A stretch of 50,206 nucleotides of DNA, from NCBI GenBank assembly GCA_013414795.1, contig CP058732.1, positions 1,225,744-1,275,949 of the forward strand, read 5' to 3'. Made by a program: the position numbers and the translations under genes. The notes beneath the pieces were generated by a model. The model saw nothing but the letters and a program-made list of their open reading frames with translations, did not search any database and was not told the origin of the DNA. Positions 21,845 to 31,149 of this stretch are shown here, in pieces. This DNA is from Candidatus Kapaibacterium sp. Its GTDB lineage: Bacteria; Bacteroidota; Ignavibacteria; Kapaibacteriales; UBA2268. How positions within the stretch are numbered: position 1 is the stretch's first letter; each line of letters starts with the position of its first letter.

Positions 21845-22561
21845 TTAAATTTTGATTCCGAAGTTCAAACCGAGAAAGAACCCCCCAAAATCTTTAATTG
21901 GTTTGTCTTTTATGCTTTCTAACCCCGAACCACCAAATGGAATCCAATATTGCCTTCCCGAGACCCCAAAATAGGATTTATCTGCTATGGGAATGTTAAC
22001 TCCTAACCCAACAAAAATACCAAAGCGAATATACATTCTTGCGTAACCAAGAGATGTGAAAAACTCCTTATCGTAGGGAGTTGATACGATGAATGTTGGT
22101 CCTAATCCAATGTTTGCATAGGGAGTGAAGTTTGTTCCAAGAACTTCTGTTAAGAATGATTGAGATAAACCAAAAGTAAGGGGAAACATATACAGTCGGT
22201 TTACTTTACCAGGAATAAAAAGTTCACCAGTATAAGGGTCGTAAAATTCAAACTCGTCTGTATTCCTTACCCCAGATAGATAAAGATTTATAAACAAATT
22301 AGTGTTTTTCCAGAAGTAGACTTCATAAAATGCACCAAAGCCAAAACCACTGTTTGAAAGGATAATGTTTAAACCCCAAAACTTTGGCTTTGTCAAAGTT
22401 TTGATTTGATTGGAAAGTAAAGGTCTTGGGCTTTGAAAAACAATAGTTGTATCGAACTGAATTGGAAGTGAAGCACTAAGAGTCTCGTCGTTTGAATAAG
22501 AAATATTAGTCAAAAAAATTGTATAAAATAAAACCAGAAGGTAAAAGTTTTTTTTCATCAT
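21845..22561 (-). CDS. Putative outer-membrane beta-barrel protein
   Basis: 238 residues from ATG 22561 or the adjacent ATG 22558, which places a signal peptide (KKNFYLLVLFYTIFLTNISYS) at the N terminus; a longer start would bury it. The mature part is rich in alternating aromatic/glycine strands typical of small outer-membrane barrels (GFGFGAFYEVYFW, MYIRFGIFVGLGVNIP, GGFFLGLNFGIKI). No family recognised with confidence. Convergent with plsC and divergent from the NIF3 gene. Function unknown. Confidence 0.6.
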   Translation of the reverse strand: MMKKNFYLLVLFYTIFLTNISYSNDETLSASLPIQFDTTIVFQSPRPLLSNQIKTLTKPKFWGLNIILSNSGFGFGAFYEVYFWKNTNLFINLYLSGVRNTDEFEFYDPYTGELFIPGKVNRLYMFPLTFGLSQSFLTEVLGTNFTPYANIGLGPTFIVSTPYDKEFFTSLGYARMYIRFGIFVGLGVNIPIADKSYFGVSGRQYWIPFGGSGLESIKDKPIKDFGGFFLGLNFGIKI

Positions 22562-22669
22562 TTTTGTCCAAGTTATCAAAAAATAAAACGTAAAGATAAT
22601 GAAAAATTGTATATGAGGCAAAAGTTTAGTAATTTCGTATGCTATAAAGTTTTGATTTTTGAAAATTTG

Positions 22670-23512
22670 ATGGGAATTGAAGATTTTTTAGTTAGAATAG
22701 GTGAATTTATTCCCTTCGATGCTGGATTTGAAGATGATAAGTTAGGAATACAAATATATACAGAACCCAAAGAAATTAAACAAGTTCTTATTGCGTATGA
22801 AGTTACTTCCGAAGTTATTGATGAAGCCAAAAATTATAACGCCGACACAATTGTTTGTTTCCATCCACTAATTTACCATCCAGTTGATAGAATAACATAC
22901 GATACTCGTGTGGGTTTGCTAATTTCTAAACTTATTCAAAATGGCCTTGGGTTAATAGTTTGCCACACCAATTTCGATGCCTTCAAAGGTGGAACAAGTT
23001 GGTTGTTTGCAGAAAAATTGGGTTTGGTTAACCTTGATTTTCTGGTCGCCAATCCCAAGCATTCTGGATTTGGATTCGGTGTTGTAGGGGAATTCCAGCA
23101 ACCAATTGCGGAGAAGGAATTTCTCGAACTTGTGCAAAAAGTTACATTTTCACCACTTCGTTGGTGCAAAGGCAAGTCTGGAAAAATTTCAAAGGTGGCA
23201 ATTGTCGGGGGCAGTGGTATGGGCTTTGCGAAGGATGCGTTTCAACTCCCATCCGATGCGTTTATTACTGCGGATATTAAATACCACAGTTTCCACGAAT
23301 ACAACGGTAGAATGATGTTGGTTGACCCTGGACATTGGGAAATGGAATATTTTGTACCAATTGGTTTGAAAAATCTTTTTGAAAATATTTTTAAACAAGA
23401 GATAACTTTTTTCGTCTCTAATATATACACAAATCCAGTTAGGTATTTTGCTGAAATCGATTACAACGAAAAGCAGAAATTTTTAGTAGTAAATAAAAAG
23501 GGTGAAAGATGA
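22670..23512 (+). CDS. NIF3-family dinuclear metal-centre protein
   Basis: 280 residues from ATG 22670 (longer in-frame starts at 22607 or 22613 add an unlike N terminus). Members of this family are toroidal hexamers with a two-metal site; the bacterial form is called YbgI/YqfO or GTP cyclohydrolase 1 type 2, but the biochemical role is unproven. Metal-site residues are visible in TIVCFHPLIYHPV, CHTNFDAFKGGTS and the C-terminal GHWEMEY. Its stop overlaps the start of the zinc-ribbon gene by four bases (ATGA), a pairing seen widely in bacteria and supportive of a joint role. Confidence 0.88.
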   Translation: MGIEDFLVRIGEFIPFDAGFEDDKLGIQIYTEPKEIKQVLIAYEVTSEVIDEAKNYNADTIVCFHPLIYHPVDRITYDTRVGLLISKLIQNGLGLIVCHTNFDAFKGGTSWLFAEKLGLVNLDFLVANPKHSGFGFGVVGEFQQPIAEKEFLELVQKVTFSPLRWCKGKSGKISKVAIVGGSGMGFAKDAFQLPSDAFITADIKYHSFHEYNGRMMLVDPGHWEMEYFVPIGLKNLFENIFKQEITFFVSNIYTNPVRYFAEIDYNEKQKFLVVNKKGER

Positions 23513-24240
23513 AGTATCCGCTTCAATATTTAGTTGCATTGTCACTGGTTGATAGGCGACAAGACGACCTTGAAGATGAGTTTGGCGATTTGCCACAAAA
23601 AATTAAAGAGAAGAAGGAGCATTACAAAGAATTAGAATCCTATGTCAAAGAGACCCAAAAAGTCTTGGAAGAAGTTCGCGATTTCATTGTGAAATCGAAA
23701 AAAGCACTCGAAGAGTTGAAAGCACGCGAAGAGAAACTTTCGAAGCAACAATTTATGGTGCGAAACAATAAAGAATTTGATGCAATAACGCGAGAGATTG
23801 AATTTGCAAGGAGCGAATTTAATAGAATTTCGCAAGAATTGCAACTCACAAGTTTGAAAGAGGAAAATCTGGTAAATGTTCTTGAACAACAAAAACAAGA
23901 AGCTGCCGAAGCATTGAAGGAATTACAAGAGTACGAGCGTGACTACGAATTGATTGCGACCAACCAAAATGATGAATTGAAAGAAATTAAAGAGGCTCGG
24001 CAGAAAATAATTGAGCATTTGGACAAGCACACTTTGGAGTTTTATCAAAGAATTAGAAATACTCATAAAGATGCGATTGTCAAGGTTAAGAGAAATAGTT
24101 GCACTGGTTGTTTTAGCCATATTCCACCACAGAAAATTATTGAAATTCGTAACAATCTTGATAAACTATACACTTGCGAGAATTGTGGTAGAATTCTATA
24201 TCCAGAAGATTTAGAAATTGACAGTGAGTACATATTATAA
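23509..24240 (+). CDS. Coiled-coil protein with C4-type zinc ribbon
   Basis: 243 residues. Residues about 20-180 are a long charged coiled coil (heptads rich in E, K, L and Q). The C terminus is a zinc ribbon with CxxC pairs in SCTGCFSHIPPQ and YTCENCGRILYPEDL. This is the DUF164/CT398-like family; homologues are proposed to bind nucleic acid or act as assembly factors, which remains unproven. It overlaps the NIF3-family gene by four bases and ends 20 bases before the RNase P RNA gene. Confidence 0.85.
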   Translation: MKYPLQYLVALSLVDRRQDDLEDEFGDLPQKIKEKKEHYKELESYVKETQKVLEEVRDFIVKSKKALEELKAREEKLSKQQFMVRNNKEFDAITREIEFARSEFNRISQELQLTSLKEENLVNVLEQQKQEAAEALKELQEYERDYELIATNQNDELKEIKEARQKIIEHLDKHTLEFYQRIRNTHKDAIVKVKRNSCTGCFSHIPPQKIIEIRNNLDKLYTCENCGRILYPEDLEIDSEYIL

Positions 24241-24247
24241 AATTTTG

Positions 24248-24255
24248 TATTTTTG
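24248..24255 (+). promoter_or_regulatory. Candidate -7 promoter element TATTTTTG of rnpB
   Basis: Exact TAnnTTTG match ending five bases before helix P1 of the RNase P RNA, which is the spacing expected between a -7 element and a transcription start. It supports the element as a true promoter in this organism. Confidence 0.6.
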
Positions 24256-24259
24256 AATA

Positions 24260-24715
24260 GTTAGAGCCGTTCTTTGATGGAAGGGTGGGCAGCCGCAAGG
24301 GTTCTTCGGAATCCTTGAGGAAAGTCCGAACTCCACGGAGCAGCCCGCTTCCTAACGGGAAGGCAGCGAGCCCCGACGGGGCAAGCTGACGGAAAGTGCC
24401 ACAGAGAACAGTCTGCCAATCCGGCTTGCGAACCGCAAGCGTCACGGAGGCGATGGTGAAACGGTGGGGTAAGAGCCCACCAGCACTCTGGGCGACCAGA
24501 GTGGCTTGGCAAACCCCGGGCGGAGCAAGGTCAAATAGGGAAGCATTGGGGAAACCCAGCCGAGTGGCTCCATCGGTAACCCTCTCGGGTTGTGCTTCTG
24601 GGTAGACCGCTTGAGGGCATTGGTGACAATGCTCCCAGATAAATGGCTGCCTCCACCAGGTTCTCTGGTGCAGACAGAATTCGGCTTACAACCCTTTCAT
24701 CTGAACGGTTCTAAC
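24260..24715 (+). ncRNA. rnpB: RNase P RNA, bacterial type A
   Basis: About 456 nt, catalytic RNA that removes 5' leaders from precursor tRNAs. Ends are set by helix P1, where GTTAGAGCCGTTC (24260-24272) pairs with GAACGGTTCTAAC (24703-24715) with one G-U pair. Conserved regions are clear: GAGGAAAGTCCGAACTCCAC near the 5' end, AGTGCCACAGAGAACAG in the middle and ACAGAATTCGGCTTACA near the 3' end. Its GC content stands well above the flanking sequence, as usual for structured RNA in an AT-rich genome. No T-tract terminator follows P1, so the transcript may be 3'-processed or read into the Hpt gene. Confidence 0.97.
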
Positions 24716-24743
24716 CGTGTTATGTTCGACAAAGGGTTTAGTT

Positions 24744-25049
24744 ATGAAACTATCTGACGATCCATTTGTTAGGGAACTGTTGCCAGAATTCGTTGACAAT
24801 TGGCTCGCTGATATCGACTCTCAATTTGACAATCTAATTCAACAGCGGAATCACGAAGATTTGTACAGATTTGCTCATACTTTGAAAGGTTCGTGTTTTC
24901 AATTTGGTTTGGACCATATCGCTCATCTGGGAATTGAATTGATGGGGTATGCCAAGGAAAAAAATTGGGAAAGGGCTCAACAGATGAAGGACGTCATTCA
25001 AAATGCATTTGTCGAGGTGAGGGACTACTTGAAGAATAATCCCCTGTGA
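24744..25049 (+). CDS. Stand-alone Hpt (histidine phosphotransfer) protein
   Basis: 101 residues from ATG 24744; a start in the rnpB 3' end is less likely. A four-helix Hpt domain with phospho-acceptor His45 in RFAHTLKGSCFQFG, followed by the typical LGIELM and GYAKEKNWERA helices. Such proteins relay phosphate between receiver domains. No hybrid kinase or response regulator gene is adjacent, and the two kinases at 5-11 kb lack receiver domains, so its partners are outside the window. It starts 28 bases after the RNase P RNA. Confidence 0.85.
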   Translation: MKLSDDPFVRELLPEFVDNWLADIDSQFDNLIQQRNHEDLYRFAHTLKGSCFQFGLDHIAHLGIELMGYAKEKNWERAQQMKDVIQNAFVEVRDYLKNNPL

Positions 25050-25077
25050 TTTTTGAAATAAATTAGGGAGAGGAAAA

Positions 25078-25569
25078 ATGAGAAAGTTTGTGTTGTCGAT
25101 TTTTACGATTTTTCTATTGCATTTTTCTTTTTCGTTCTCGCAACTTCGCATTGCAGTGCTTCCCTTTCAGAATATGGACGGCGATCTTTCCTTGAACCTT
25201 CTCAGTTATCAACTTCAAGATAGCGTAGCAAAATTGCTTCACCAGTACGACTCGACCCAAAAATACTTTGTAATTATTCCGGCAGATTCTATTGATTTCC
25301 TTGTTAGTCAATTTAATCTTGACCCGACTAACCCCCAATATCCGACGGATATGTGGAAGGCTGTGAAAATGCTTAACGCTGATGCTGTGATTAGTGGGAC
25401 TTTTAATCGTAAAGCCGAACGGATTTTAATTAATGCCTACATTTACGATGTCAACACGAAACTTGCCTACCCAGATCACCAGGCACGAGATATTTTCAAG
25501 CCAGAAGACAAAGTTATGGAAGCAGTGCCAATTATTGTAAAAAAATTGCTTCCTGGGTTAATCCAATAA
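25078..25569 (+). CDS. Small secreted protein with FlgO/TolB-N-like fold
   Basis: 163 residues behind a good ribosome-binding site (GGGAGAGG). Signal peptide at residues 1-22 (ending FSFSFSQ). The mature region begins LRIAVLPFQN, followed by QLQDSVAKLL and AVKMLNADAVISGTF, the pattern of the alpha/beta domain found in FlgO, TolB N-terminus and CsgG/LpoB-like lipoproteins. No lipobox cysteine, so it should be a soluble periplasmic protein. Exact role unknown. It follows the Hpt gene by 28 bases and may share its transcript; it ends one base before the convergent cupin gene. Confidence 0.65.
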   Translation: MRKFVLSIFTIFLLHFSFSFSQLRIAVLPFQNMDGDLSLNLLSYQLQDSVAKLLHQYDSTQKYFVIIPADSIDFLVSQFNLDPTNPQYPTDMWKAVKMLNADAVISGTFNRKAERILINAYIYDVNTKLAYPDHQARDIFKPEDKVMEAVPIIVKKLLPGLIQ

Positions 25570-25570
25570 T

Positions 25571-25903
25571 TTATTTAAAGAATATTGCAAGCCAGATGGA
25601 TTCTTCATCGGGTGTTGTCCATTCAACCCGATGCTTACGATGTGGTTCAATTAATATATAATCTCCGCTGTTAAGAGTAATCTCTTGGTTATCTTCGAAT
25701 TTTAATATTGCTTTCCCTTTCAAAAGAACTACCCATTCGTATTCTTCTTGGTCGTACCAAAAACCGGATGGTGAACAATGTCCTTTTGAAATAATTTTTT
25801 CGATTCTAATACCATCTTTTTGAAAAAGCGTTTCAAAAAATTCTTCATCTGGATTGAAAATGTAATTTTTAGATTTAAAAATATTCCCGAAATTATTAGT
25901 CAT
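25571..25903 (-). CDS. Single-domain cupin
   Basis: 110 residues from ATG 25903. A conserved small beta-barrel with GHCSPSGFWYDQEEYEWVVL, LKGKAILKF, LNSGDYILIEPHRKHRVEWT and WLAIFF. The first cupin motif has H, E and E residues plausible for metal binding and the second supplies PHRKHR. The family is widely distributed, and its small-molecule substrate is not established. Its start overlaps the end of the DNA methyltransferase gene by eight bases, so both are probably co-transcribed, though a functional link is not evident. Confidence 0.82.
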   Translation of the reverse strand: MTNNFGNIFKSKNYIFNPDEEFFETLFQKDGIRIEKIISKGHCSPSGFWYDQEEYEWVVLLKGKAILKFEDNQEITLNSGDYILIEPHRKHRVEWTTPDEESIWLAIFFK

Positions 25904-27443
25904 AGAATAACTTATCATTGTTATTTATCGGTCTAACTTCCTTGGTTGCCTTTTTGAATATTGTTGGGTCGGCACCACCGGGCAATTTGGGTCCATTTCC
26001 TTCGAGAAGATCCTCTATTGTGATAATTTGAATTCGGTCGATGTTGAAACCATTGTATTTGCCTACTTTTTTTGCCTCGCTTTTCATTGAGTCTGTTACA
26101 TATTCTTTGAAACAAACAAAGAATCCTAAATCTGCATTTTGCTTTTCAACAACTTGAATAAAAGAACGAATCATATTAATATTAACGGAGCCACTTTTTA
26201 CTTCAATCAATATTTTGCCTCTTTCATTTTCTGATTTCGCAAAGGAAATATAGCCGTCCCAACCTCCATCAGCCGATTTTTTGGGATTCACTATTCCACC
26301 AAGTAAAATTTCTACGACCCAATATTGAAATTCCAATCTACCTTTTGTCCCTTTATTTGCAAGTTCTTTTGCAGAAGCAATATCACGAGGAAATCCGTGA
26401 ATTTCAATTTCTTTTAAAATTGATTTTTTAGTTTCGTCGTCGTAAGGGTCTGTAAGTCTTTTAAGAACCAAGCGAATTGCTAGATGGGAAATATCTACAC
26501 CAATCCATTGTCGATTGAGACGATTAGCAACTGCTATTGTAGTCCCACAGCCACAGAAGAAATCGGCGACAAGATCGCCTTCGTTCGATGAGGCTAGAAT
26601 AATTTTTTCCAGTAATGCTTCGGGCTTTTGAGTTGGATAACCAAGACGCTCTTTGGAAGCCCTATTTATCACCGGGATTATAAACCAATCTCTTGGTGGA
26701 ACACCAGGTGATTTATCCAAATAATCACGGTAAACCCACTCTGGATGGGTTGATTCTAATTCGATACTTAACCCTTGTTTTCCAAGGTAAGGTCCCCCTT
26801 TCCCTCTAATTTGAAAACGGCGTCCGTTTTCATCAACATAATTAAATTTTTTATATGTACCCAGGCTATAATCCTCTGCAACTAATTCCCAATTAAATTT
26901 GTTATTCATTGATTTTGTATAAAACAGAATTACGTCATGTTTTTTATTCCATTGTTTTTTTGAAATTTCACGCTCTTTGTAGCACCAAATTAATTCATTG
27001 AATCTGACATTCCTCCCAAAAATCAAATCACATATAACTTTGAGATAGTGACTCATATTTGGGTCGCAATGTAAATAGAAGGAGCCAGTATCTTTCAAAA
27101 CTTTATGCATATAAAATATTCTTATTGCCATAGTTGTCAAATAGGAAACTGTAGATGTAGAAATATTAATTCTATCAAGTGTTTTTAGGAATTGATAGAC
27201 ATCATCGTGTAAATCTGCTAATTCATTCAATGAATCAATATAACTGACATTGCTCCAAGTATCTGTAAATGCTTCTCTTTGGGCTTTGGTATCTTCCATT
27301 TCAATGTGCTCAAATAAAATATTATAATCGCGCTTGGAATTAAAAGGTGGGTCGATATAAATTAGATCAATAAATCCTTTTGGATGCTCGCGAGCAAATT
27401 TTTTTAAAACATCAAGGCAGTCACCAAAATATAATTGTTTCAT
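25896..27443 (-). CDS. Site-specific DNA methyltransferase fused to a restriction-endonuclease-like domain
   Basis: 515 residues. Residues 1-330 form a beta-class amino-methyltransferase: motif IV DPPF at 31-34 comes before the SAM-binding FFCGCGTT at 295-302, and GYPTQKPEALLEKII lies just ahead of it. The order and DPPF suggest N6-adenine or N4-cytosine methylation. Residues about 368-485 look like a PD-(D/E)XK nuclease fold of the Mrr type: GGWDGYI with Asp396, then ILIEVKSGS with Glu414 and Lys416. The two activities in one chain suggest a single-protein restriction-modification or methyl-directed enzyme. There is no specificity subunit, helicase or separate nuclease gene nearby. The recognition site is unknown. 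It sits among housekeeping genes between a cupin and tRNA-Glu, so it may be an insertion next to a tRNA. Confidence 0.85.
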   Translation of the reverse strand: MKQLYFGDCLDVLKKFAREHPKGFIDLIYIDPPFNSKRDYNILFEHIEMEDTKAQREAFTDTWSNVSYIDSLNELADLHDDVYQFLKTLDRINISTSTVSYLTTMAIRIFYMHKVLKDTGSFYLHCDPNMSHYLKVICDLIFGRNVRFNELIWCYKEREISKKQWNKKHDVILFYTKSMNNKFNWELVAEDYSLGTYKKFNYVDENGRRFQIRGKGGPYLGKQGLSIELESTHPEWVYRDYLDKSPGVPPRDWFIIPVINRASKERLGYPTQKPEALLEKIILASSNEGDLVADFFCGCGTTIAVANRLNRQWIGVDISHLAIRLVLKRLTDPYDDETKKSILKEIEIHGFPRDIASAKELANKGTKGRLEFQYWVVEILLGGIVNPKKSADGGWDGYISFAKSENERGKILIEVKSGSVNINMIRSFIQVVEKQNADLGFFVCFKEYVTDSMKSEAKKVGKYNGFNIDRIQIITIEDLLEGNGPKLPGGADPTIFKKATKEVRPINNNDKLFYD

Positions 27444-27498
27444 TTTTTAAAATATTAAAAATAGAAAATTAAGAAAATCATGGGAATGTAAAATTTTG

Positions 27499-27570
27499 TA
27501 GCGCATAGGGGATTCGAACCCCTGCCGCGGCCTTGAGAGGGCCGTGTCCTAACCACTAGACGAATGCGCC
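27499..27570 (-). tRNA. tRNA-Glu (anticodon CTC)
   Basis: 72 nt cloverleaf read on the minus strand: acceptor GGCGCAT/ATGCGCT, D arm GTCTAGTGGTTAGGAC, anticodon arm CGGCC-CTCTCAA-GGCCG with CTC in the loop, T arm AGGGG-TTCGAAT-CCCCT, discriminator A. TTCGTCTAG at positions 6-14 of the molecule is characteristic of tRNA-Glu. The first pair is a G-U wobble and CCA is not encoded. A TAATTTTG promoter element lies nine bases upstream. Confidence 0.95.
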
Positions 27571-27579
27571 TTTAAAATG

Positions 27580-27587
27580 CAAAATTA
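27580..27587 (-). promoter_or_regulatory. Candidate -7 promoter element TAATTTTG of tRNA-Glu
   Basis: Exact TAnnTTTG match on the minus strand ending nine bases before the mature tRNA 5' end. A TTG lies 17 bases upstream of it, roughly where the Bacteroidetes -33 element is expected. Confidence 0.6.
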
Positions 27588-27610
27588 AAAAAACTTATGT
27601 AAATCAACAA

Positions 27611-29803
27611 CTATCGGACCCTATTTTGTTGAGGATAATTCCTGGGTCGACTCGAAGGTCCAACGCCCGAATGCTCCGGTTTGGGAAGCAATGCCTTTCT
27701 GCTTAATTTGTACTTCCCATCGGCTGTGATTTCGATTAACATTACGTCCACTTTGTCGCCAACGTTAAGTATGTCCGATATTCTATTAATCTTCTTGTAG
27801 TCGATGTGGGAAATGTGGAGCAAACCAGTTTTCTTTGGTAGAAATTCGACAATAGCCCCAAGCCCTTCGCGGATTTCTTTAACTTCCCCTTTGTAAACAT
27901 CGCCAACTTCTGGCTTACGTACAAGATTTTCAATCATTTCTTTGGCTCGTTGGCTATCTTCTTTGCAAGTTGCTGCAATTTGAACTGTTCCATCTTCTTC
28001 AATGTAAATCGATGTATTGGTTTCTTTTGCAATTGAACGGATTGTTTCGCCCCCGGGACCAATTACCAGTCCAATCATATCGGTCGGGATTTTTATAGTG
28101 GTATACCGTGGAGCATATGGTGAAATATCCGGTCTTGGTTGGGAAATTGTATTGTTCATAATTTCTAAAATCTTCAATCTGGCTTCTTTTGCTTGTTGGA
28201 GCGCGTTTCGCATAATTTCGATGGATAGCCCTTCGATTTTAATGTCCATCTGGCAGGCAGTAATTCCATCTTTCGTTCCAGCCACTTTAAAATCCATATC
28301 GCCAAGATGGTCCTCGTCGCCAAGTATGTCTGTTAAAACTGCAACATTGTCTCCTTCTTTGATTAATCCCATTGCAATTCCGGCTACTGCTTTCTTCATT
28401 GGAACTCCGGCGTCAAAAAGAGAAAGGCTTCCGGCGCATACCGTAGCCATAGAGGAACTGCCATTAGATTCTAATATATCGGACACAACCCGAATCGTAT
28501 AGGGAAAATCATCTTGGTCTGGAAGCATATTTTTTAATGCTCGCTCGGCAAGGTTTCCGTGTCCAATTTCACGCCGACTGACACCAGTTAACCTTCCAAC
28601 TTCACCAGTGCAGAAAGGTGGAAAATTGTAGTGTAGCATAAAGCGGGAAGTGTAAACTGGGAAAATGCCGTCAAAAATTTGTTCATCCTCCTTGGTGCCA
28701 AGAGTTGTAGTACAAAGTGCTTGTGTTTCACCGCGAACAAAAAGCGATGAACCGTGAGTTCTCGGTAAAAGCCCAACCTCGCAATAAATCGGTCTAATAT
28801 CCTTTAAACCTCGACCATCGAGCCTTCGGTTCTCGTTCAAAATCATTTTGCGCATTTCTTTCTTTTCGATTTCATTCACGATGTTGGCAACAGCCATTTC
28901 GAAATTGAATTCGGCGTACTCTTCTTTTTCCCCAAATGTGGCAACAGCCTCCTCGAGTGCTTTTTGGACAAATCGTTCCCGCCACTCTTTTCTTTCTTTC
29001 TTTGTGGTTATTGTATGAATGTAATTATCAAGTTCTTCTTTGATGGAATTTTCAATGAGATTAACCAAATCTTCGGGATAGACAATTTCCTTGTATTCGC
29101 GTTTTGGAATACCAACTTTTTCGGCGAGTTCTCTTTGCATAGCATTAAGAAGTCTGATTTTTTCGTGTGCAAATTGTAGGGCTTGAAGGAAATCTTCCTC
29201 GGAAATTTCTTTTGCTTCGCCCTCAACCATTACAATGGAAGTGTCGGAGCCGGCAACGGTCAGATCCATATCTGAATTTTTAAGTTCGTCGATAGTTGGA
29301 TTGATTTTGAAGACGCCATTTATACGACCAACGCGAACCTCTGAAATAGGTCCGTTGAAAGGTATGTCCGAAATCATTAATGCAGCAGAAGCGCCAACCA
29401 TACCAAGAGTATCCGGGTCCACATCTGGTTGTGAAGAAAATACTGTGGCAATGATTTGAGTTTCATAACGCCAGGATTTAGGAATCATAGGTCGGATGGG
29501 GCGGTCGATTAGCCTTGCAGCCAAAATTTCGCGATCGGTTGGTTTGCCTTCGCGTTTGATAAACCCGCCGGGAATTTTTCCAGCAGATGAACTTTTTTCT
29601 CTATATTCTACTTGAAGTGGAAGAAAATCGATATCAGTTCGTTCGGTATCGGAAGCGACAGCGGTAACCAAAACCATTGTGTCGTCGTATTTGACCATTA
29701 CAGAGCCATTTGCAAATTTTGCAAATTTTCCCGCTTCAAGAGAGTATTCTTTTCCATCAAAATCGATTTTAACGACCACGCTTTCCCGATTGTTACTTTC
29801 CAT
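27611..29803 (-). CDS. pnp: Polyribonucleotide nucleotidyltransferase (PNPase)
   Basis: 730 residues, ATG start with AAAGGAAA upstream. Phosphorolytic 3'-5' exoribonuclease, trimer, part of mRNA decay. Two RNase PH domains are present: the first begins LEAGKFAKFANGSVMV, and the second carries RRLDGRGLKDIRPI, FVRGETQAL, GEDEDHLGDMDF-type (here ILGDEDHLGDMDFKVAG) and the active-site aspartates. They are followed by the KH domain (MIGLVIGPGGETIRSI) and an S1 RNA-binding domain (GDVYKGEVKEI, TGLLHISHID). Order and length are standard. It follows rpsO with a strong terminator hairpin between them. Confidence 0.97.
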   Translation of the reverse strand: MESNNRESVVVKIDFDGKEYSLEAGKFAKFANGSVMVKYDDTMVLVTAVASDTERTDIDFLPLQVEYREKSSSAGKIPGGFIKREGKPTDREILAARLIDRPIRPMIPKSWRYETQIIATVFSSQPDVDPDTLGMVGASAALMISDIPFNGPISEVRVGRINGVFKINPTIDELKNSDMDLTVAGSDTSIVMVEGEAKEISEEDFLQALQFAHEKIRLLNAMQRELAEKVGIPKREYKEIVYPEDLVNLIENSIKEELDNYIHTITTKKERKEWRERFVQKALEEAVATFGEKEEYAEFNFEMAVANIVNEIEKKEMRKMILNENRRLDGRGLKDIRPIYCEVGLLPRTHGSSLFVRGETQALCTTTLGTKEDEQIFDGIFPVYTSRFMLHYNFPPFCTGEVGRLTGVSRREIGHGNLAERALKNMLPDQDDFPYTIRVVSDILESNGSSSMATVCAGSLSLFDAGVPMKKAVAGIAMGLIKEGDNVAVLTDILGDEDHLGDMDFKVAGTKDGITACQMDIKIEGLSIEIMRNALQQAKEARLKILEIMNNTISQPRPDISPYAPRYTTIKIPTDMIGLVIGPGGETIRSIAKETNTSIYIEEDGTVQIAATCKEDSQRAKEMIENLVRKPEVGDVYKGEVKEIREGLGAIVEFLPKKTGLLHISHIDYKKINRISDILNVGDKVDVMLIEITADGKYKLSRKALLPKPEHSGVGPSSRPRNYPQQNRVR

Positions 29804-29844
29804 TTTTCGTATTTCCTTTAAACTTGATTAAGCAAATAGAAACG

Positions 29845-29878
29845 AAAAAAGCGGTTTATTTATTGCAAATAAACCGCT
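29845..29878 (-). terminator. Rho-independent terminator after rpsO
   Basis: Perfect 12-bp stem AGCGGTTTATTT / AAATAAACCGCT (29850-29861 with 29867-29878) with a 5-base loop, followed in the minus-strand reading direction by a T-tract (A run at 29845-29850). It lies about 20 bases after the rpsO stop and before pnp, and would limit read-through into pnp. It could also serve as an mRNA-stability hairpin at the rpsO-pnp boundary. Confidence 0.85.
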
Positions 29879-29898
29879 CGATTTTTCACGAGTATTAA

Positions 29899-30165
29899 CT
29901 ACTTCCTTAAATTTAAGGAGGCTAAAATTTGACGATAGCGATTGATATCGGTTTTTTCGAGGTACTTCAATAAGCGTTTTCTTTTACTTACTAATTTAAT
30001 TAATCCGCGTCGGCTATGGTTATCCTTTTTGTGTGTGTTTAGATGGTTCGTTATATCTTGAATACGAGCGGTTAATAGGGCAATTTGGACTTCGGTTAGC
30101 CCAGTGTTCTTTTCGTCTCCACCAAATTTTTTGATAATTTCGGCTTTCTGTTCTTTTAAAATCAT
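29899..30165 (-). CDS. rpsO: 30S ribosomal protein S15
   Basis: 88 residues from ATG 30165 (a TTG four codons upstream would add residues not found in the family, and the correct length is about 89). Binds 16S rRNA central domain. Motifs: GLTEVQIALLTARI, LNTHKKDNHSRRGLIKLVSKRKRLLKYL. It is transcribed from its own TAATTTTG promoter in the end of ribF and terminated by the hairpin upstream of pnp, an arrangement that matches the common ribF-rpsO-pnp order. Confidence 0.97.
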   Translation of the reverse strand: MILKEQKAEIIKKFGGDEKNTGLTEVQIALLTARIQDITNHLNTHKKDNHSRRGLIKLVSKRKRLLKYLEKTDINRYRQILASLNLRK

Positions 30166-30187
30166 TGAAAACTCCAAATAAGAATTA

Positions 30188-30195
30188 CAAAATTA
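30188..30195 (-). promoter_or_regulatory. Candidate -7 promoter element TAATTTTG of rpsO
   Basis: Exact TAnnTTTG match on the minus strand, 22 bases before the rpsO ATG and overlapping the ribF stop codon. A TTTG sits 19 bases upstream, at the position expected for a -33 element. Same TTTTAATTTTGTA core as secD. Confidence 0.6.
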
Positions 30196-31149
30196 AAAAA
30201 AATTTTTCAAATTCAAATTGTTAATAAGATTTAGACTGTGTTCCTTGTCTTTATTTAATTGAATTAACAATTCATCAATAGAGTTGAATTTTTGCTCATT
30301 TCGAAGGAATTTCAAAAAATGTACTTTTAAGTTTCTTTTGTATAAATCTCCAGCGAAATTAAGATAGTAGACCTCTAAAACACGTTTCTTTTCGCTGTGA
30401 AATGTTGGTCGAAAGCCTAAATTTGCCATTCCGTAAACGATTTTGCCGTCAATATTCGAATAGACCAAATACACTCCGTTCGAAGGGACAAGTTTGTGTT
30501 CATCGTCGAACTTTATGTTCGCCGTTGGAAAGCCTAAACTTGCACCGCGTCCGTCTCCAGTTACAACTGTGCCAGTTATAAAATAATGATAACCCAGCAA
30601 CTTGTTTGCCAATTCTATTTGATTTTGCAATAAAGCATTGCGTATTTTTGTGCTCGATACAGTTATTTCCTCTGTAATGAAAGCGGGAATTCTTTCGACA
30701 AAAAATCCTAATTCATTTGAAAGTTTAGACAAAAGTTCAAAGTTTCCTTCCCGATTCTTTCCAAAGAAATGGTCGTGTCCAACAAGTATATGGGAAAACC
30801 CTACCTTTTGGTGAAGAATCTCTCGAACAAATGCTTCGGCGGAAATTTGTGCAAATTCTTTGGTGAATGGAATTATTAGTACTTTCTCGATACCGAACTT
30901 TTCGAAAAGGAGCAATCGTTCTTCAATCGTTGTTAATAGTTTGATGGGTTCTTTCTCTGGTCGTTTGACTACAAATTGAGGATGTGGGTCGAATGTAATT
31001 ATTAACGACTTTCCGTTTTCAATTTTAGCAATTTCTTTTATTCTATTTAAAATTTTTTGATGTCCAAGATGCACACCATCGAAGGTGCCAACCGTAATGA
31101 TATGCTTTGAATTGTTTGAAATTTGCTCAATTCCGTGAAATACTTCCAT
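30193..31149 (-). CDS. ribF: Bifunctional riboflavin kinase/FAD synthetase
   Basis: 318 residues from ATG 31149; the TTG three bases upstream is unlikely. Converts riboflavin to FMN and FAD. The N-terminal nucleotidyltransferase domain has GTFDGVHLGHQKIL, ITFDPHP, FAQISAEAFV, VGHDHFFGKNREG and VSSTKIR. The C-terminal riboflavin kinase domain has GTVVTGDGRGASLGFPTANI, GVYLVYS and the Glu of RVLEVYYLNFAGDLY. Start overlaps the truB stop by one base (TGATG), so coupled translation is likely. Confidence 0.96.
   Translation of the reverse strand: MEVFHGIEQISNNSKHIITVGTFDGVHLGHQKILNRIKEIAKIENGKSLIITFDPHPQFVVKRPEKEPIKLLTTIEERLLLFEKFGIEKVLIIPFTKEFAQISAEAFVREILHQKVGFSHILVGHDHFFGKNREGNFELLSKLSNELGFFVERIPAFITEEITVSSTKIRNALLQNQIELANKLLGYHYFITGTVVTGDGRGASLGFPTANIKFDDEHKLVPSNGVYLVYSNIDGKIVYGMANLGFRPTFHSEKKRVLEVYYLNFAGDLYKRNLKVHFLKFLRNEQKFNSIDELLIQLNKDKEHSLNLINNLNLKNFF

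What the first reader, a model, noticed from the sequence alone, without database searches (positions are those of the whole stretch)
25571..27443. Adenine/cytosine DNA methyltransferase fused to an Mrr-like nuclease domain in one polypeptide
Seen: DPPF at 31-34 and FFCGCGTT at 295-302 give a beta-class methyltransferase; D396 with E414-V-K416 gives a likely PD-(D/E)XK site about 100 residues downstream. Known: Type IIG and related enzymes combine both functions, but usually with the nuclease N-terminal or a specificity domain between. Here the nuclease-like part is C-terminal and no TRD, helicase or second subunit is nearby. Inference: a compact restriction-modification or modification-dependent enzyme. 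A cupin gene overlaps it by eight bases. It neighbours tRNA-Glu but no att site was seen.
Basis: partly seen in the sequence, partly recalled or inferred. Interest (0 to 1): 0.6.

Follow-up and report, generated by a model that had tools for sequence, protein, structure and literature searches.

The report
One-gene phage-borne restriction-modification enzyme
This gene encodes a single protein that most likely both marks DNA by methylation and cuts unmarked DNA, built in an order (methylase first, nuclease last) that differs from textbook one-protein restriction enzymes, and relatives with exchanged DNA-reading parts are found in many phages.

Summary
The fusion is real. AlphaFold models support both folds. 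Across 112 aligned sequences, the window's included, DPPF and D396 are in 112 and K416 in 111; residue 414 is E, Q or S.

The central region behaves as an exchangeable cassette. In one related genome four paralogues are 79-97% identical in methylase and nuclease parts but 14-28% in the central region; the window's own cassette is 56% identical to one in a gammaproteobacterial protein whose nuclease is only 23% identical. No conserved partner gene was found. Two congeners with the same gene order lack only this gene. Relatives occur in temperate phages and many viral contigs.

Best reading: a single-chain, helicase-free restriction-modification enzyme. It works like Type IIG but fails its definition (gamma-class methylase, N-terminal nuclease). 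Activity, target site and methylated base are untested. My ten paper searches listed no description of this architecture; REBASE could not be consulted.

The parts
25896..27443 (-). fusion gene: beta-class DNA amino-methyltransferase with internal TRD and C-terminal Mrr-type PD-(D/E)XK nuclease, 515 aa
27009..27443 (-). methyltransferase N-terminal half (residues 1-145, with motif IV)
27342..27353 (-). motif IV DPPF (residues 31-34), in 112 of 112 aligned sequences
26658..26996 (-). target recognition region (residues about 150-262), hypervariable and exchangeable
26439..26657 (-). methyltransferase C-terminal half (residues 263-335, with motif I)
26538..26564 (-). motif I DFFCGCGTT (residues 294-302)
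26004..26351 (-). Mrr-type PD-(D/E)XK nuclease domain (residues 365-480)
26256..26258 (-). D396, predicted metal-binding Asp, in 112 of 112 aligned sequences
26196..26204 (-). E414-V415-K416; K in 111 of 112 aligned sequences, position 414 S 51, Q 43, E 18
25571..25903 (-). cupin gene downstream, ancestral at this locus, not part of the system
27498..27570 (-). tRNA-Glu (CTC), ancestral neighbour, intact

Best explanation
A single-chain Type II-like restriction-modification enzyme. The central region reads one short DNA sequence; the beta-class methylase halves around it methylate an amino group (m6A or m4C) of that site in host or prophage DNA; when the site is unmethylated, the C-terminal Mrr-type PD-(D/E)XK domain, delivered by the same reader, cuts DNA at or near it, probably after two molecules meet since each chain has one nuclease site. 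Changing the one reader changes both activities together, so specificities can diversify safely. It can travel as a single gene and gives its host (or, in phage copies, the lysogen) protection against unmethylated incoming DNA. Shown: domain order, folds (predicted), conservation of both active sites, cassette exchange, a single-gene difference from congeners, no conserved partner in the stretches examined, presence on phages. Inferred: both activities, cleavage of unmethylated DNA, dimerisation, defence role.
For: Both domains above Pfam cut-offs; N6_N4_Mtase, NA-iREase1 and Mrr_cat in 52, 50 and 47 of 52 scanned sequences. AlphaFold of the whole protein pLDDT 81.9, pTM 0.77; of the nuclease alone pLDDT 91.9, pTM 0.88. 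Whole model: M.BceJIV Z 26.1, rmsd 3.1, 241 aligned; M.RsrI Z 25.3, rmsd 2.9, 251 aligned. Nuclease model: R.BspD6I2 Z 10.1, rmsd 3.2, 123 aligned; AF1548 Z 10.0, rmsd 2.5, 100; AspBHI Z 9.8, rmsd 3.0, 117; BamHI best by Foldseek, E 6.5e-4, the only match of 699 at E 0.001 or better. In the model D396 lies just before strand 397-402 and E414-K416 at the end of strand 408-415, as in PD-(D/E)XK enzymes. DPPF and D396 in 112 of 112, K416 in 111 of 112. Four paralogues of genome G010: methylase halves 81-97%, nuclease 79-88%, residues 176-250 14-28% identical, 6 of 6 pairs. Window cassette 56% to L018 against backbone 39% and nuclease 23%; 8 of 4696 TRD-matching pairs exceed backbone by 15 points or more over at least 70 columns. 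The most frequent neighbour cluster near 111 homologues occurs at 12 loci and reads as a serine recombinase. Congeners G001 and G002 have 163-aa gene, cupin, tRNA-Glu, pnp without this gene.
Against: No activity, methylome or cleavage data. Position 414 is Ser in 51 of 112, unusual for a PD-(D/E)XK site, so some members may be weak or inactive. A profile of the nuclease domain found no solved relative by sequence (only Rpb5 at E 0.84), Rpb5 chains also score up to Z 8.7 on the model, and Pfam's best label for the domain is an 'inactive' nuclease family. The model is poor at 36-62 and 494-515. In 1 of 11 annotated regions, the Cellulosimicrobium plasmid, a gene annotated as a restriction endonuclease lies just upstream of the fusion. 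The partner search saw 3.8 kb or more on both sides at only 53 of 111 loci. At E 1e-60 only 4 of 296 genomes of the phylum match, the own genome included.
Confidence: 0.7

Rival explanations
1. A solitary methyltransferase whose C-terminal domain is a non-cutting, DNA-binding or oligomerising relic of a nuclease; function is epigenetic marking or shielding phage DNA from host restriction.
For: The Pfam label matched by most members for this domain is NA-iREase1, 'inactive' (50 of 52, against 47 for Mrr_cat); position 414 is Ser in 51 of 112; 342 of 370 matching phage records cover less than 80% of the protein, many presumably plain methylases.
Against: D396 in 112 of 112 and K416 in 111 of 112 aligned sequences, down to about 28% identity; the window protein has the orthodox D-EVK set; PD-QxK is the Mrr arrangement in print (PMC3874165, PMC12707154, passages). 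The 112 were picked for covering both parts, which favours intact domains.
Confidence: 0.14
2. A modification-dependent (Type IV-like) nuclease combined with a methylase: the nuclease cuts DNA carrying foreign modification, the methylase has a separate role.
For: The nuclease is of the Mrr type, and AspBHI and MspJI, modification-dependent enzymes, are among the structural neighbours.
Against: No SRA or winged-helix reader found by Pfam at E up to 1; an enzyme cutting its own mark would be suicidal (inference); the hypervariable reader lies inside the methylase.
Confidence: 0.06
3. A Type III-like Mod that needs an unlinked helicase-nuclease (Res) in trans, its own nuclease domain being accessory.
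For: Foldseek ranks EcoP15I Mod first for the whole model; a Mucilaginibacter plasmid methylase with a 43% identical reader sits beside a ResIII helicase; the own genome holds ResIII frames elsewhere, one of 936 aa.
Against: No helicase-sized ORF beside the gene and no recurrent neighbour; no helicase annotated in the 11 regions, a RecB-like nuclease at the edge of one; the Mucilaginibacter methylase has no Mrr match; the own 936-aa frame lies about 2 kb from another methylase-like frame, presumably its own Mod.
Confidence: 0.06
4. A Type IIG enzyme in the accepted sense.
For: Methylase and nuclease in one chain without helicase.
Against: Type IIG is described as gamma-class methylase with N-terminal cleavage domain (PMC3874165, PMC4081073, passages); here motif IV precedes motif I and the nuclease is C-terminal.
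Confidence: 0.04

Closest known systems
Type IIG (IIC) restriction-modification enzymes such as BpuSI, BcgI, MmeI
   Same: methylase and PD-(D/E)XK nuclease in one chain sharing one reader; specificity changes for both at once
   Different: IIG: gamma-class methylase, N-terminal nuclease, C-terminal or separate S module; here beta class, internal reader, C-terminal Mrr-type nuclease
Beta-class amino-methyltransferases (M.RsrI, M.BceJIV, CcrM, MboIIA)
   Same: motif order IV then I, internal TRD, fold (Z 24-26)
   Different: these carry no nuclease (recalled)
Type III Mod subunits (EcoP15I)
   Same: beta-class methylase with internal TRD; a 43% similar reader occurs in a methylase beside a ResIII helicase
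   Different: Type III needs a separate Res helicase-nuclease
Mrr / MspJI-family modification-dependent nucleases (AspBHI)
   Same: Mrr-type catalytic domain
   Different: they have wH or SRA-like readers and no methylase
Type ISP enzymes (LlaGI, LlaBIII)
   Same: Mrr-like nuclease (PD-QxK) and methylase in one chain
   Different: ISP: N-terminal nuclease, translocase, gamma-class methylase, C-terminal TRD

Membership tests
Beta-class amino-methyltransferase | motif IV precedes motif I, TRD between | tested here: met
   DPPF 31-34, D294-T302, variable region 150-262; structural neighbours M.RsrI, M.BceJIV, CcrM
[quoted passage not shown] (E/Q)xK | tested here: met
   Mrr_cat above cut-off, model secondary structure, structural neighbours, D396/K416 conservation; in 51 of 112 aligned sequences position 414 is Ser instead
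PD-(D/E)XK superfamily, Mrr type | nuclease activity | not testable with these tools
   needs biochemistry
Type IIG | methylase and nuclease in one chain | tested here: met
Type IIG | gamma-class methylase | tested here: not met
   motif IV before motif I; definition from passages of PMC3874165 and PMC4081073
Type IIG | N-terminal cleavage domain | tested here: not met
   nuclease at 365-480 of 515
Type IIG | cleavage at a fixed distance, AdoMet dependence | not testable with these tools
   needs biochemistry
Type III | adjacent Res helicase-nuclease | tested here: not met
   longest other ORF at 22000-31000 is 730 aa, read as pnp; no ResIII match of the own genome falls within the window
Type IV / Mrr | modified-base reader domain (wH or SRA) | tested here: not met
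   Pfam at E up to 1 found methylase and nuclease families only
Type IV / Mrr | cleavage depends on modification | not testable with these tools
   needs biochemistry
Type ISP | translocase domain in the chain | tested here: not met
   515 aa with no helicase match

The most novel reading that the evidence does not exclude
A distinct class of one-gene restriction-modification enzymes: beta-class methylase, swappable internal reader and C-terminal Mrr-type nuclease, spread largely by temperate phages as lysogen-protecting genes, with reader cassettes moving between distant lineages and even shared with a two-gene helicase-dependent system. It would be the beta-class counterpart of Type IIG and a ready scaffold for reader exchange.
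Probability: 0.4. Interest if true: 0.68.

Novelty: new variant of a known kind. Interest (0 to 1): 0.5.

Why it matters
The two standard reviews whose passages I read describe one-chain restriction-modification enzymes (Type IIG) as gamma-class with, in one of them, an N-terminal nuclease. A phage-borne family with the opposite build and only about 500 residues would extend that scheme, suggest that some phage genes annotated merely as 'DNA methyltransferase' are exclusion systems, and offer a compact scaffold in which one exchangeable segment should set both the methylated and the cut sequence.

Tried and rejected
Att site or mobile-element footprint: tRNA-Glu is intact and present in G001 and G002; the longest exact repeat shared by the two junction stretches searched (50 and 70 bases) was 6 bases. 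Rejected as evidence of tRNA integration.

Cupin as partner: rejected, since it sits beside the 163-aa gene in G001, G002 and G003 without the methylase. In G004 no cupin follows that gene.

No motif could be inferred, so site avoidance was not tested.

Base methylated: DPPF does not decide between m6A and m4C, because m4C Type III Mods carry DPPY/F too (PMC8259958, passages).

Strict co-variation of residue 373 (Q/E) with 414 (E/Q/S), as for a migrated catalytic carboxylate: looked for and not found.

Lysogeny neighbourhood: 35 of 85 viral loci have a recombinase or CI-like repressor, by similarity to ten seeds, within 4 kb; no control was run and this may be near chance, so only single cases are used as examples.

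Virus against cell split: on a backbone tree of 112 tips (85 viral) the label changes 9 times, against a shuffled mean of 24.5 and minimum of 20: repeated but not free exchange.

A Res partner in trans: the own genome has 11 ResIII matches, 6 or more in ordinary helicase-sized frames; not excluded, see rivals.

Rows dropped before counts: of 44 distinct ORFs matched (54 with duplicates), 32 were aligned; 12 were left out because BLAST showed only the methylase part or they were fragments (L002, L014, L033, L037, L039, L040, L042-L047 without L041). Four of the 32 (L032, L035, L036, L038) match the window protein only to residue 428 or 445. The 80 viral sequences are the best 80 of 567 relatives, themselves from a capped list of 600 stretches.

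Papers: searches (15 of 26 listed), 96, 105; none listed a paper whose title or abstract start describes this architecture. Passages only were read of PMC3874165, PMC4081073, PMC4389544, PMC12707154, PMC1189080, PMC8259958, PMC12839542, PMC10853773.

Full report
What is there. The minus-strand ORF at 25896-27443 encodes 515 residues. Pfam places N6_N4_Mtase at 25-325 (E 8.8e-44), NA-iREase1 at 377-468 (E 6.4e-9) and Mrr_cat at 386-478 (E 2.2e-7), each above its cut-off. The 25 PADLOC matches shown, of 67, are methylases; the nuclease part matches the unnamed candidate family PDC-S02 (model PDLC04815) in 24 of 32 members.

Anatomy. DPPF (motif IV) comes before D294-FFCGCGTT (motif I), so the methylase is of the beta class. 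Beta-class enzymes carry their reader between these halves (recalled from the Malone classification). In ten close homologues, mean identity to the window protein is 0.75-0.97 in several blocks of both halves but 0.06-0.09 at residues 211-240. In 112 aligned sequences the stretch between residues 150 and 262 is 66 to 178 residues long.

Structure. AlphaFold of the full chain with 52 aligned sequences: pLDDT 81.9, pTM 0.77; poor at 36-62 and 494-515. VIA-align gives M.BceJIV Z 26.1 (rmsd 3.1, 241 aligned) and M.RsrI Z 25.3 (rmsd 2.9, 251 aligned), within residues 1-351. The nuclease domain modelled alone: pLDDT 91.9, pTM 0.88; neighbours R.BspD6I2 Z 10.1, AF1548 Z 10.0, AspBHI Z 9.8, FokI, MspJI and Nt.BspD6I entries at 8.7-9.0; Foldseek's best is BamHI, E 6.5e-4. 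Rpb5 chains of RNA polymerases also score 6.5-8.7, so the fold match alone does not prove catalysis. By sequence the nuclease profile found no solved relative.

Catalytic residues. Over 112 aligned sequences, the window's included (32 from the genome, relatives, plasmids and phages; 80 from viral contigs): D31, P32, P33, F34, D294, G298 and D396 are in 112 of 112, K416 in 111 (Thr in L067), position 414 is S 51, Q 43, E 18. These were chosen for covering both parts: 12 of 44 distinct ORFs were left out, and the 80 viral ones are the best 80 of 567 relatives. So the counts do not estimate how often the fusion is lost. PD-QxK is the Mrr arrangement (PMC12707154 and PMC3874165, passages); Ser there is unusual.

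Cassette exchange. Genome G010 of the same family has four copies; for all six pairs the methylase halves are 81-97% and the nuclease 79-88% identical, residues 176-250 only 14-28% over 39-69 aligned columns. Of genome G018 five copies were compared; among the four close ones the same stretch is 11-27% identical. The reverse, a reader more alike than its backbone by 15 points or more over at least 70 columns, occurs in 8 of 4696 pairs with a reader match. One is the window: 56% to the gammaproteobacterial L018, with backbone 39% and nuclease 23%, whereas its closest backbone relative L020 (73%) has a 26% identical reader. Not every close pair differs: L019 (backbone 68%) has a 47% identical reader. 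This is the pattern expected if one reader sets the specificity of both activities. A 43% identical reader also sits in a 671-residue methylase next to a ResIII helicase on a Mucilaginibacter plasmid.

Locus history. Congeners G001 and G002 have the 163-aa gene, the cupin, tRNA-Glu and pnp in the same order, without the fusion gene. G003 has the 163-aa gene and cupin with another gene beyond and no tRNA in the 2,901 bases fetched; in G004 no cupin follows. The four congeners have only partial methylase matches (best E 1.8e-18). So this one gene was gained between cupin and tRNA-Glu or, less simply, lost in the others. No long flanking repeat was found. GC of the ORF is 34.8% against 35.8% for the window, so composition says nothing.

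Distribution. 34 of 40 genomes, own included, have some methylase match, but at E 1e-60 only 4 of 296 genomes of the phylum, own included. On phages 28 of 370 matching records cover 80% or more of the protein: among the 20 listed are Marinitoga phage MPV1, Streptomyces Likavirus phages and Mycobacterium phage Amgine; on plasmids 8 of 456. In MPV1 it lies next to a CI-like repressor, in three Likavirus records one small gene from a serine integrase, in Amgine near integrase and immunity repressor, in contig L065 between genes that I read as a repressor and an integrase. Near 111 homologues no neighbour cluster exceeds 12 loci, with 3.8 kb or more on both sides at 53 of them. In 11 annotated regions no helicase is annotated, though a RecB-like nuclease lies at the edge of one, and one, on a Cellulosimicrobium plasmid, has an annotated restriction endonuclease just upstream.

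Mechanism. Shared reader, two conserved active sites, no recurrent partner, a one-gene difference between congeners and phage carriage fit a self-contained restriction-modification enzyme that spares DNA it has methylated. A nuclease that cut its own mark would destroy its carrier (inference). Dimerisation for double-strand cutting is inferred from one nuclease site per chain. If the site is asymmetric, as in Type III and MmeI enzymes, newly replicated sites would need protection by slow or two-site cutting; unknown. The own genome has ResIII frames elsewhere; one of 936 aa lies about 2 kb from another methylase-like frame, so it probably has its own partner, but help in trans is not excluded.

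Comparison. Type IIG enzymes are described as gamma-class (PMC4081073) with N-terminal nuclease (PMC3874165; passages); Type ISP has an N-terminal Mrr-like nuclease, a translocase and a gamma methylase. The window protein fails these definitions but works alike. My ten paper searches (see Tried and rejected) listed no description of the beta-class, C-terminal Mrr build. Subscription papers and REBASE were not searchable, so 'undescribed' is not claimed.

Noticed in passing
window 24277-24704 (+): Bacterial class A RNase P RNA (Rfam RF00010, 296.5 bits); the ORFs listed within it are probably not genes.
   Followed up: yes
L163 1712-6300: Mucilaginibacter plasmid: 671-aa beta-type methylase beside a ResIII helicase, with a reader region 43% identical to the window's, so the same cassette may serve two architectures.
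   Followed up: partly
   Followed up: partly
L032, L034, L035, L036, L038, L041: Sister group with DPPFFS and a shorter QVK-type nuclease-like region followed by a further C-terminal stretch; Pfam found only the methylase in L035, the one scanned.
   Followed up: no
L067 4983-6419: The only one of 112 aligned sequences with Thr in place of the catalytic Lys, a candidate natural nuclease-dead variant.
   Followed up: no
G000:C1:27750-30545 (L171, L003): A ResIII frame of 936 aa about 2 kb from a methylase-like frame of 629 aa in the window's own genome, perhaps a separate Type III system.
   Followed up: no
L055 2813-5737: Cellulosimicrobium plasmid with an annotated restriction endonuclease gene just upstream of the fusion homologue.
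   Followed up: no
window 25571-25903 (-): Small cupin similar to the cupin half of TIGR03890 (94.3 bits, below its cut-off of 159.45).
   Followed up: no
L164 487-5010: Flavobacterium phage with four annotated DNA methylase genes within 4.6 kb.
   Followed up: no
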